Shown here: positions 6,554 to 8,695 of the stretch, piece after piece
How positions within the stretch are numbered: position 1 is the first letter of the stretch
Layout: each line of letters starts with the position of its first letter
Source of the DNA: Luteitalea pratensis
GTDB lineage: Bacteria > Acidobacteriota > Vicinamibacteria > Vicinamibacterales > Vicinamibacteraceae
NCBI RefSeq assembly: GCF_001618865.1
Contig: NZ_CP015136.1
Coordinates: 6,359,001 to 6,423,000, forward strand
Reading direction: 5' to 3'
DNA length: 64,000 nucleotides
The notes under the pieces: model-generated
The model's database searches: none
What the model saw: the letters and a program-made list of their open reading frames with translations, nothing else
Told to the model about the DNA's origin: nothing
Program-made: the position numbers and the translations under genes

Positions 6554-8695
6554 ATGTCGTTCTCCACACGCATCCTGCTGTGGCTCGCCACAGGCATCGT
6601 CACCGGCCTGGTCCTGGGCGACCTCGTGGCGCCCCTGTCCGTCGTGGCGACGGGCTTCGTGAAGCTCCTGCAGATGACGGTGCTGCCCTACGTCGTCATC
6701 TCGATCATCGCCAGTCTCGGGAGCCTGTCGGTGGCCGAGGCGCGCCGGCTGGGCGTCCGTGCAGGAATGGTGCTGGTCGCACTGTGGAGCATCGGCGTGG
6801 CGTTCGCCCTGCTGATGCCGGTCGTCTTCCCGACGCTGGTGCAAGGCACGTTCTTCAGTACGTCGATGCTGGAGCGGCCGCCGGATTTCGACTTCGTCGA
6901 TCTCTACATTCCGTCCAATCCGTTCAACTCGCTCGCGAACAACATCGTTCCCGCGGTGGTCCTGTTCTCCATCGTGCTCGGAGTGGCGCTGATCTCGGTG
7001 CCACGCAAGGACGTGCTGCTCGATGTGCTGTCGGTGGCTCGGGACATGGTCGGACGATCGACGAAGTTCATCGTGCGGCTCACCCCGTACGGCATGTTCG
7101 CGGTGGCCGCGGTCGCGGCCGGTACGCTGCAGATCGAACAGCTGGCCCGGATCCAGGTGTACCTGGTCGCCTATGTCGCGGTGGCGGTCCTGCTGGCCGC
7201 CTGGGTGCTGCCCGGGCTGGTCGCGGCCCTGACGCCCGTCGGTTACATCGACCTCGTGCGATCGACGCGCGACGCGATGCTGACGGCGTTCGTGGCCGGC
7301 GACCTGTTCATCGTCCTGCCCTCGCTGACCGACTCGTGCAAGGACTTGCTCGAACGGAACCTGCCGGCGCGCCAGGGTGAACACGCCGCTACCCTCCCCG
7401 ACGTCATCGTGCCCGCGTCGTTCAACTTCCCCCACACGGGCAAGCTGCTGTCGCTCAGCTTCGTGCTGTTTGCCGGCTGGTTCGCCAACGTGCCGATTCC
7501 GTTCACGTCGTATCCCGCGTTCGCCATTACCGGCTGGCTGACCTTCTTTGGCAGCCTCAGCGCGGCCGTGCCGTTCCTGCTCGACGTGTTTCGCATTCCC
7601 GCCGACACGTTCCAGCTGTTCCTGGCGACCGGCGTCATCAACCAGCGCTTCGGCTCGCTGCTCGCAGCCGTCCACACCGTCGTCGTGGGCCTGCTCGGCA
7701 GCGCCGCCATCGCCGGCGCCGTCCGCTTCGACGTGGCGCGGATCACGCGCTACCTCGTGATCACGGGCTGCCTCGTGGTCGGACTCCTGGGCTCGCTGCG
7801 GCTGCTCTTCGAGACGGCCCTGCGCCCGACATTCGACGGCGCTGCGGTGGTGAGCGCGCTCAAGCCGGTGCTGCCGAGGGCGCCGCTCACCGACGGCGCG
7901 GGTGTCGCGGCTCGCCCGCTCGACAGCAATGTGCTGGCGTCGATCAAGGCCACCGGAATGATCCGCGTGTGCTACCTGGAGGGACGCCCGCCGTACGCCT
8001 TCGTCAACAGCAATCGCGAACTGGTCGGGCTCGACATCGAGATGGCGCACCAGCTCGCCATCGACCTGCAAGTTCGCCTGCAGCTGGTGCCGACGTCAAT
8101 CGACGACTTCACGAACGCGCTCGCGCAGGGACGCTGCGATATCGGCACCGGCGGCATTGTCGCGACGCCGGGCCGGGCGTCGGTGGTCGCATTCTCGACG
8201 CCGTACATGCAGGAGAGCCTCGCGTTCGTCGTCCCGGATCACCTTCGCGGCGATTACGACACATGGGACAAGGTCCGGGCGCGCAAGTCGGTGCGCATCG
8301 GCTTCCCTGACGTGCCCTACTTCCGCCGCCAACTCGAGCAGCGGCTGCCCGAAGCGACGCTCGTGCCCGTGCCGATGATGAACGCGATCTTCACCGACAG
8401 GGGCTGGGCCTTCGAGGCGCTGGTGCTCTCGGCCGAACGCGGGGCGTTCCTGTCGCTGCTGTATCCCGGCTACTCGGTTGTCGTACCCACGCCAGGCGTG
8501 ATCACCGTGCCAGTGGCCTACGCGCTGCCGCAGCATGACGACGCCTGGAAATCGTTCGTGGACACCTGGCTGGCACTGCACGAGCGCGACGGCGCGATCA
8601 CGACGCTCGTCGACCACTGGGTGTTCGGCAAGTCGCTCGCGCCAGCGACACGCCGATGGTCAGTCGTCCGCGACGTCCTGCACTGGGTGGACTAG
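6554..8695 (+). CDS. Dicarboxylate/amino acid:cation symporter fused to a periplasmic solute-binding domain
   Basis: A 713-aa fusion. Residues 1 to about 430 are a DAACS (GltP/DctA-type) symporter with many TM helices. Family-like stretches include LQMTVLPYVVISIIASLGSL, NPFNSLANNIVPAVVLFSI and VIVPASFNFPHTGKLLSL. After a last helix (ITGCLVVGLLGSLRLLF) and a linker, residues about 457-700 form a family 3 solute-binding domain: DSNVLASIKATGMIRVCYLE, GLDIEMAHQLAIDL, IDDFTNALAQGRCDIGTGG and FSTPYMQESLAFVV. The binding domain would sit in the periplasm, tethered to the transporter, and could deliver substrate directly. Substrate unknown (acidic amino acid or C4-dicarboxylate by family). The ATG at 6554 has only a weak ribosome-binding site. 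The gene stands alone, convergent with the next. Confidence 0.88.
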   Translation: MSFSTRILLWLATGIVTGLVLGDLVAPLSVVATGFVKLLQMTVLPYVVISIIASLGSLSVAEARRLGVRAGMVLVALWSIGVAFALLMPVVFPTLVQGTFFSTSMLERPPDFDFVDLYIPSNPFNSLANNIVPAVVLFSIVLGVALISVPRKDVLLDVLSVARDMVGRSTKFIVRLTPYGMFAVAAVAAGTLQIEQLARIQVYLVAYVAVAVLLAAWVLPGLVAALTPVGYIDLVRSTRDAMLTAFVAGDLFIVLPSLTDSCKDLLERNLPARQGEHAATLPDVIVPASFNFPHTGKLLSLSFVLFAGWFANVPIPFTSYPAFAITGWLTFFGSLSAAVPFLLDVFRIPADTFQLFLATGVINQRFGSLLAAVHTVVVGLLGSAAIAGAVRFDVARITRYLVITGCLVVGLLGSLRLLFETALRPTFDGAAVVSALKPVLPRAPLTDGAGVAARPLDSNVLASIKATGMIRVCYLEGRPPYAFVNSNRELVGLDIEMAHQLAIDLQVRLQLVPTSIDDFTNALAQGRCDIGTGGIVATPGRASVVAFSTPYMQESLAFVVPDHLRGDYDTWDKVRARKSVRIGFPDVPYFRRQLEQRLPEATLVPVPMMNAIFTDRGWAFEALVLSAERGAFLSLLYPGYSVVVPTPGVITVPVAYALPQHDDAWKSFVDTWLALHERDGAITTLVDHWVFGKSLAPATRRWSVVRDVLHWVD

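What the first reader, a model, noticed from the sequence alone, without database searches (positions are those of the whole stretch)
6554..8695. DAACS symporter covalently fused to a family 3 solute-binding domain
Secondary symporters normally work without binding proteins; ABC or TRAP systems use them. Here one polypeptide carries a full DAACS transporter and, after its last helix, a complete SBP-3 domain. A tethered receptor could raise affinity or act as a substrate sensor gating the symporter.
Basis: partly seen in the sequence, partly recalled or inferred. Interest (0 to 1): 0.6.

Follow-up and report, generated by a model that had tools for sequence, protein, structure and literature searches.

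The report
Glutamate-transporter-like protein with built-in binding protein
One bacterial membrane protein joins a remodelled relative of glutamate transporters to an external solute-catching domain, a pairing kept across several bacterial groups that may be a further kind of binding-protein-assisted ion-driven transporter.

Summary
The fusion is real. One 713-aa ORF (6554-8695 +) carries Pfam SDF (142 bits) and SBP_bac_3 (81 bits). Seventeen full-length members (27-77% identical to it), from Acidobacteriota, a Binatia bin and two gammaproteobacterial plasmids, carry both domains. In 193 genomes of the class, the 13 long hits to this SDF subtype (490-607 bits) are all fused; other SDFs score at most 105. 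SDF and SBP trees each set the fusions apart on one supported branch.

A ninth helix, absent from 18 ordinary SDFs, follows a basic loop and predicts the SBP outside. And the transporter is not canonical: the HP1 SS, TM7 NxDGT and TM8 RxxxN signatures occur in 0 of 17, yet the core is under stronger selection than the SBP. The SBP is complete, but the usual amino-group Asp is absent in 17 of 17; the carboxylate Arg is kept in 11, the window included.

Most likely a binding-protein-coupled elevator transporter distinct from TRAP, TTT and TAXI-GltS. Substrate, ion and SBP dependence are untested. I found no description in the open-licence library.

The parts
6554..8695 (+). whole fusion gene, 713 aa (SDF core + TM9 + linker + SBP_bac_3 + conserved tail)
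6563..7690 (+). SDF (DAACS-fold) membrane core, residues 4-379
   Evidence: Pfam PF00375, 142.3 bits; profile-profile match to 18 ordinary SDFs, probability 99.85%
7289..7321 (+). HP1 equivalent, FVAGDLFIVLP (residues 246-256), in place of the SS-containing motif of ordinary SDFs
7418..7444 (+). TM7 equivalent, SFNFPHTGK (residues 289-297), in place of NxDGT
   Evidence: residues 282-312 are 100% identical to the same-genus copy
7571..7606 (+). family motif PFLLDVFRIPAD (residues 340-351) in the HP2-TM8 region; HP2 aligns with a six-residue gap against ordinary SDFs
   Evidence: D344 and D351 each in 16 of 17 members; gap in the profile alignment
7742..7816 (+). predicted extra helix TM9 (about residues 397-421), preceded by a basic loop
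   Evidence: loop with 2-5 K/R and 0-1 D/E in 17 of 17; 18 ordinary SDFs end without such a helix
7817..7948 (+). linker, residues 422-465, sequence variable
7961..8626 (+). SBP_bac_3 domain, residues 470-691, both lobes
   Evidence: family profile positions 4-236 of 260 match AncCDT-1, 191.5 bits
8174..8176 (+). Arg541, at the carboxylate-binding Arg position of amino-acid SBPs
   Evidence: kept in 11 of 17; role recalled
8429..8431 (+). Ser626, at the amino-group Asp position of amino-acid SBPs
   Evidence: Asp in 0 of 17; an acidic residue two places on (E628) in 16 of 17; role recalled
8651..8692 (+). conserved C-terminal tail, residues 700-713 (RRWSVVRDVLHWVD)
   Evidence: W702, S703 and W711 each in 16 of 17; absent in G250

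Best explanation
It is one member of a conserved family of single-chain, binding-protein-coupled transporters. The N-terminal SDF core is expected to form a trimeric elevator like other DAACS-fold proteins (inferred from the family, recalled). A ninth helix carries the chain out of the membrane, so a family 3 SBP hangs over the outer mouth of its own transporter. The SBP catches a small ligand outside and hands it to a transport domain whose own substrate and cation site has been rebuilt, so that delivery by the SBP probably replaces the high-affinity site of ordinary DAACS symporters. Shown by sequence: the fusion, its conservation, the pairing of this SDF subtype with the SBP in every sampled long hit, the changed core and the selection on it. 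Predicted: the topology. Inferred: transport, delivery, coupling to an ion gradient, substrate.
For: Both domains in 17 of 17 members. In 193 class genomes the 13 long hits to the SDF-part profile (490-607 bits) are the same 13 places that the full-length profile covers to its end; apart from one split copy (G090, 214 bits) the other listed matches score at most 104.8 bits. I examined 21 of these and two ordinary SDFs of the window's genome: none of the 23 has an SBP in its locus frames. SDF and SBP trees each put the 17 fusions on one side of a branch (100/100 and 96/95) with three shared subclades. Basic loop plus TM9 in 17 of 17, none in 18 ordinary SDFs. The membrane part is more conserved than the SBP in 16 of 16 comparisons with the window, and dN is 0.086 against 0.235, so it is no mere anchor; TM7 and TM8 are 100% and 97% identical between the same-genus copies. 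SBP match over nearly its full length. Precedent: TAXI-GltS fusions are proposed as an SBP-dependent elevator transporter (PMC12344293).
Against: No transport, binding or structure data. The cation-site residues of ordinary DAACS proteins are missing, so ion coupling is unsupported. The amino-group Asp of the SBP is lost in 17 of 17 and the Arg in 6 of 17, so the ligand may not be an amino acid or may differ between subclades. Structure prediction of the whole chain failed (mean pLDDT 46) and the SBP model is weak (63). The deeper branching order differs between the SDF and SBP trees, with weak support on the SBP side. Recurring neighbours (TLC nucleotide-transporter-like protein, PPK2) do not point to an amino-acid uptake operon, and regulators stand near some copies. 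One search scored at most 9 candidates per genome, so a weakly matching SBP-less relative could have been passed over.
Confidence: 0.55

Rival explanations
1. Tethered sensor or transceptor: the SBP reads an outside ligand and the SDF part transmits the state or gates a leak, with little or no transport.
For: Canonical transport residues are gone. SBP_bac_3 domains also serve as sensor domains (a 'Sensor protein' chain is among the matches). Regulators stand near some copies: a hybrid histidine kinase at window 10743-12938 (-), with a 74% relative in the same-genus locus L015, and sigma-54-type regulators in L014 and L069.
Against: Pfam finds only SDF and SBP in the protein, 17 of 17, so no cytoplasmic signalling domain. 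The regulators are of different types and the kinase is three genes away and shared closely only within the genus. The membrane core is under stronger selection than the SBP.
Confidence: 0.17
2. One reading: an ordinary Na+ or H+ coupled DAACS amino-acid or dicarboxylate symporter whose affinity is raised by an attached SBP, the symporter also working alone.
For: Pfam SDF well above cut-off; scaffold helices align with GltPh and other solved aspartate transporters, and the family profile extends through position 375 on EAAT1 chains; Arg541 of the SBP kept.
Against: HP1 SS, TM7 NxDGT and TM8 R-x3-N signatures in 0 of 17, against 16, 15 and 18 of 18 ordinary SDFs. The single-sequence match to GltPh stops after HP1. 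No SBP-less SDF of this subtype was found in 193 genomes.
Confidence: 0.13
3. The SBP-like domain is an enzyme (cyclohexadienyl-dehydratase-like) tethered to a transporter for its product or substrate.
For: The best solved relatives include reconstructed and natural cyclohexadienyl dehydratases.
Against: AncCDT-1, the best match of the family profile, is titled an ancestral amino-acid-binding protein. The Glu of the TDxxE stretch of AncCDT-5 aligns with position 629, which is Glu in 0 of 17 (catalytic role recalled).
Confidence: 0.07
4. Gene-prediction or assembly artefact, or a decaying chance fusion.
For: Some copies are split or fragments (G090, G087).
Against: 17 full-length open members, among them complete and plasmid sequences; purifying selection.
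Confidence: 0.01

Closest known systems
TAXI-GltS fusions and TAXI-GltS systems (PMC12344293: abstract, passages and whole Discussion seen)
   Same: An SBP fused in one chain to a membrane protein related to a glutamate symporter of presumed elevator type; proposed SBP-dependent secondary transport.
   Different: There the membrane part is GltS and the SBP is TAXI type at the N-terminus. Here the membrane part is SDF/DAACS and the SBP is family 3 at the C-terminus after an added helix; Pfam finds only SDF and SBP_bac_3.
TRAP transporters (e.g. SiaPQM; PMC9352664, PMC9971032 seen as search listing with start of abstract only)
   Same: SBP plus elevator membrane part, ion driven.
   Different: Other membrane family, SBP usually a separate protein; no TRAP family matches here.
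DAACS/SDF symporters (GltPh, DctA, GltP; Pfam PF00375)
   Same: Scaffold helices and overall core are homologous.
   Different: 18 ordinary SDFs compared have neither a ninth helix nor an SBP; HP1, TM7 and TM8 signatures differ and HP2 aligns with a gap.
ABC importers with SBPs fused to the membrane subunit (e.g. the glutamine permease-SBP chain 6h30, listed)
   Same: Family 3 SBP tethered to its own transporter.
   Different: ATP-driven and of a different membrane fold (recalled).

Membership tests
DAACS / SDF (PF00375) | sequence similarity over the membrane core | tested here: met
   17 of 17 match PF00375, window 142.3 bits against a cut-off of 27.9; hhalign 99.85%
DAACS / SDF (PF00375) | HP1 serine motif (SS) | tested here: not met
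   0 of 17 fusions, 16 of 18 ordinary SDFs
DAACS / SDF (PF00375) | TM7 NMDGT-type cation motif | tested here: not met
   pattern N[ML][DN]G[TS] in 0 of 17 fusions, 15 of 18 ordinary SDFs
DAACS / SDF (PF00375) | TM8 Arg and Asn of the substrate/cation site (R-x3-N) | tested here: not met
   0 of 17 fusions, 18 of 18 ordinary SDFs; the local profile alignment ends at the start of TM8, so the TM8 stretch was placed by eye
DAACS / SDF (PF00375) | Na+ or H+ coupled transport | not testable with these tools
   needs reconstitution
SBP family 3 (PF00497) | complete two-lobe domain | tested here: met
   17 of 17 match; family profile to AncCDT-1, positions 4-236 of 260, 191.5 bits
SBP family 3 (PF00497) | carboxylate-binding Arg of amino-acid binders | tested here: inconclusive
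   window has it (R541); 11 of 17
SBP family 3 (PF00497) | amino-group-binding Asp of amino-acid binders | tested here: not met
   0 of 17; S, P or T instead
SBP-dependent secondary transporters (TRAP, TTT, TAXI-GltS) | homology to their membrane parts or SBPs | tested here: not met
   only SDF and SBP_bac_3 found at E 0.001 in 17 of 17
SBP-dependent secondary transporters (TRAP, TTT, TAXI-GltS) | SBP on the outer side of the membrane | tested here: met
   prediction only: basic TM8-TM9 loop and TM9 in 17 of 17
SBP-dependent secondary transporters (TRAP, TTT, TAXI-GltS) | transport requires the SBP | not testable with these tools
   needs reconstitution with and without the SBP

The most novel reading that the evidence does not exclude
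A further, independently evolved class of SBP-dependent elevator transporter, built on the archetypal GltPh-type fold. Its transport domain has given up the canonical substrate and cation site and works only with the receptor it carries, so one chain shows how an elevator was converted from self-sufficient to receptor-dependent.
Probability: 0.4. Interest if true: 0.82.

Novelty: new variant of a known kind. Interest (0 to 1): 0.64.

Why it matters
The TAXI-GltS authors state that TRAP and TTT were the only secondary transporter families known to work with a soluble SBP before their study, suggest that some feature of the elevator mechanism may be required, and write that further classes will allow this to be tested (PMC12344293, Discussion). 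This family offers such a test on the well-studied GltPh-type fold, in one polypeptide and with three supported subclades. It is also a natural case in which the canonical substrate and ion site of a DAACS protein was replaced while the fold family was kept. A database name ('cation:dicarboxylase symporter family transporter' for the Pseudoalteromonas member) hides this.

Tried and rejected
Whole-chain AlphaFold from four sequences: mean pLDDT 46, not used. SBP-domain model: mean pLDDT 63; Foldseek found SBP-type folds at the top (best E 1.6e-14, probability 1.00) with TM-scores (query) of only 0.34-0.44 in the first ten, so it supports the class of fold and nothing finer. Viral contigs: 38 pattern matches, none a relative. 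An end-to-end forced hhalign against two SDFs misaligned the C-terminal part and was replaced by a local one against 18 SDFs. A first neighbour survey with longest ORFs picked antisense frames and was redone with all frames; at least two antisense frames had been sent to Pfam without a match. Three of the 18 ordinary SDFs (L071, L084, L085) also lack the TM7 pattern, so that motif alone does not set the family apart. Promoter and terminator scan uninformative. Frames around five more low-scoring SDFs, four of them long, were checked for a second SBP fusion; none was found. Eight literature searches for the fusion: five returned nothing; one search returned one paper, whose passages name DAACS only as a family count (PMC3180692); two searches returned three each. 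Of those six, PMC12344293 and PMC11574862 were looked into and the other four seen only as listings. The library holds open-licence papers only, terms with '/' or ':' cannot be searched, and may have failed for that reason.

On the once-only check I corrected: a statement that no regulator stands near the fusions (wrong, and the sensor rival was raised from 0.15 to 0.17 for it), the L059 gap (19 bases), the claim that all other matches are ordinary SDFs (21 were examined), the Omp85 note for L065, and the tree comparison.

Full report
Observation. Frame 6554-8695 (+) is open for 713 codons. Pfam finds SDF at residues 4-379 (142.3 bits) and SBP_bac_3 at 470-691 (81.5 bits) and nothing else at E 0.001. 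It is the only match in the 7,480,314-base genome at E 0.001, which also holds two ordinary SDF genes. The same-genus genome G001 has two copies, 77% and 38% identical to the window protein.

The family. A scan of GTDB genomes with the single protein gave three relatives over nearly the whole length: two Acidobacteriota and one Binatia bin. With an 8-row profile, 24 of 193 genomes of the class and 11 of 297 genomes drawn from the phylum had a match at E 1e-30, some of them SBP-only or fragments. tblastn against plasmids found two records of 72,556 in which one place covers at least 80% of the query: Halioglobus pacificus (37%) and Pseudoalteromonas xiamenensis (33%). The latter is annotated 'cation:dicarboxylase symporter family transporter'. 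Seventeen full-length members were aligned (A4); all 17 match both Pfam families. Cut or broken copies (G042, G087, G090, G217, one of three in G070) were left out. Start codons of some members were chosen by script and may be off by some residues. Other phyla could not be sampled with the genome search.

Is the pairing fixed? A profile of the SDF part plus TM9 was run on 193 class genomes, at most 9 candidates scored in each. Thirteen hits score 490-607 bits in ORFs of 679-989 aa; the full-length profile covers the same 13 places to its end, SBP included. One split copy (G090) gives 214 bits. The rest of the listed matches score 104.8 bits or less. I examined 21 of these and the two ordinary SDFs of the window's genome: none has an SBP in the frames of its locus, and in the four long frames looked at's loci (605-1130 aa) the SDF lies at the C-terminal end. 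So in this sample the subtype was not seen without an SBP, nor an ordinary SDF with one.

Trees. The 17 SDF parts lie on one side of a branch against 18 ordinary SDFs (100/100) and the 17 SBPs against 15 free SBPs chosen by similarity (96/95). The subclades {window, G001a, G033, Binatia}, {G040, G070a, G071} and {G035, G001b, G147, G166, G138} appear in both trees with starred support. The deeper order differs: the SDF tree joins the third subclade to the first (97/97), the SBP tree sets it apart (77/93, not starred); G035 also sits differently inside its subclade. The program warns of long branches for G212, Pseudoalteromonas and two ordinary SDFs. One fusion event with joint inheritance is the simplest reading, and domain exchange deep in the family is not excluded.

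Topology. Ordinary DAACS proteins have eight helices and both ends inside (recalled), so an SBP placed after TM8 would sit in the cytoplasm. Here a further hydrophobic segment (about residues 397-421) follows TM8. The loop before it holds 2-5 K/R and 0-1 D/E in 17 of 17 members, as expected for the inside. The 18 ordinary SDFs end 17-49 residues after the TM8 motif without such a segment. The SBP is therefore predicted outside, from charge and hydropathy alone.

The membrane core. Single-sequence comparison with solved structures aligns residues 1-259 at most with aspartate transporters and GltPh, stopping after HP1. The family profile ends near position 266 on the best two chains, but reaches 332 on some GltPh chains and 375 on EAAT1 chains, so the fold kinship of the rest is not in doubt. 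Against 18 ordinary SDFs, hhalign gives 99.85% over 348 columns, with a six-residue gap in HP2, and ends at the start of TM8. Signatures, ordinary against fusions: SS in HP1, 16 of 18 against 0 of 17; N[ML][DN]G[TS] in TM7, 15 of 18 against 0 of 17; R-x3-N in TM8, 18 of 18 against 0 of 17. In the window these places read AGDLFIVLP, NFPHTGK and NQRFGSL; G212, Halioglobus and Pseudoalteromonas deviate in TM7. Site names and roles in GltPh are recalled. The replaced core is not decaying: TM7 and TM8 are 100% and 97% identical between window and G001a, and dN over residues 1-388 is 0.086 against 0.235 over the SBP, with dS 0.72 and 0.94. In 16 of 16 comparisons with the window the SDF part is more conserved than the SBP.

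The SBP. The family profile matches the ancestral binding protein AncCDT-1 over positions 4-236 of 260 with 191.5 bits, so both lobes are present. Arg541, at the place of the carboxylate Arg of amino-acid SBPs, is kept in 11 of 17; the others have T, W (3), S and D. The place of the amino-group Asp is S, P or T in 17 of 17; an acidic residue two places on is present in 16 of 17. The subclade with Trp at the Arg place (G040, G070a, G071) also has its own core signature (NFPNAGR in TM7, GKFDS in TM8), so pocket and core changed together along the tree; with three related sequences this is only suggestive. After the SBP 16 of 17 members keep a tail with RWS and a late W; G250 lacks it and Pseudoalteromonas has a shorter form. 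Its role is unknown; contact with the membrane or transport domain is a guess.

Surroundings. The window gene lies between a patatin-like phospholipase with a weak Omp85 match (4103-6442 +) and a 367-aa gene without Pfam match (8719-9822 -), followed by PPK2 (9755-10666 -) and a hybrid histidine kinase (10743-12938 -); the same order of relatives is seen in L015 of the same genus, with an added TLC gene. Among the 20 loci compared, a TLC ATP/ADP-transporter-like protein lies near the fusion in 7 (L015, L016, L017, L018, L059, L065, L067) and PPK2 in 5 (window, L015, L017, L059, L067). PF03219 itself is found at six of the seven places; the L015 gene is assigned by similarity to the L059 one. 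In L059 the TLC gene ends 19 bases before the fusion gene on the same strand; in L016 TLC, a DUF3011-like gene, a free SBP and the fusion follow one another on one strand. The 15 genomes searched give 0-7 TLC and 1-4 PPK2 matches each, so such linkage is above chance by my own rough estimate. Several loci are short, 13 of 20 show no TLC and 15 no PPK2. Sigma-54-type regulators stand near the copies in L014 and L069. What the neighbours mean for the substrate I cannot say; they do not look like an amino-acid uptake operon.

Mechanism. Best supported is a receptor-coupled elevator transporter (0.55). In order of confidence: fusion and conservation (shown), outside SBP (predicted), ligand binding by the SBP (likely from its complete fold), hand-over to the membrane part (inferred), ion coupling (open, because the known cation ligands are missing). 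A sensor, an ordinary symporter with an affinity-raising receptor, and an enzyme-transporter pair remain as rivals.

Known or new. The closest described systems are TAXI-GltS and TRAP. The Discussion of PMC12344293 (read whole) says only TRAP and TTT were known to work with SBPs before that study and says further classes would test whether an elevator is needed. PMC11574862 and PMC8276074 were seen as passages, the other TRAP papers as search listings. Eight searches found no paper on a DAACS-SBP fusion, four of the returned papers being seen only as listings. Whether TCDB or InterPro lists the architecture could not be checked.

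Noticed in passing
L015, L016, L017, L018, L059, L065, L067: A TLC ATP/ADP-transporter-like membrane protein lies near the fusion gene in 7 of 20 loci compared, in L059 19 bases away on the same strand; reason unknown.
   Followed up: partly
window 9755-10666 (-); also L015, L017, L059, L067: PPK2 polyphosphate kinase is a recurring neighbour of the fusion, 5 of 20 loci.
   Followed up: partly
window 10743-12938 (-); L015; L014 10497-13668 (+); L069 10531-13314 (-): Regulators near the fusion: a hybrid histidine kinase in the window, with a 74% relative in the same-genus locus L015, and sigma-54-type regulators in L014 and L069.
   Followed up: partly
L016 10467-12055 (+); L059 5937-7557 (-): A free SBP_bac_3 protein and a DUF3011-like protein sit next to the fusion in two genomes; the free SBPs fall outside the fused ones in the tree.
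   Followed up: partly
window 8651-8692 and members of A4: C-terminal tail RWS...VLxW after the SBP, W702, S703 and W711 each in 16 of 17, function unknown.
   Followed up: partly
G070:C144 (L061 2-2041 and from 2038): Two fusion genes in tandem, overlapping by four bases; the first is cut by the contig end.
   Followed up: no
window 4103-6442 (+); L017 3975-5117 (+); L018 4693-5991 (+): Omp85-type matches recur near the fusion: patatin with a weak Omp85 match in the window, Omp85 plus an unassigned partner gene in L017 and L018. The related L065 gene has no Pfam match.
   Followed up: partly
L065 9653-10462 (-); L067 8998-9927 (-): PAP2-family phosphatase genes beside the fusion in two genomes.
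   Followed up: no
L010 1231-3684 (-): A long frame in G028 with a cyclohexadienyl-dehydratase-like SBP domain after some 490 residues of another part, not identified.
   Followed up: no
L003: The member from a Candidatus Binatia bin groups with Acidobacteriota members (60% to the G033 one): gene transfer or binning error; beside it an Asp-Al_Ex permease gene at 992-2695.
   Followed up: no
window 8719-9822 (-): 367-aa gene without Pfam match, 62% identical to a gene in the same-genus locus L015.
   Followed up: no
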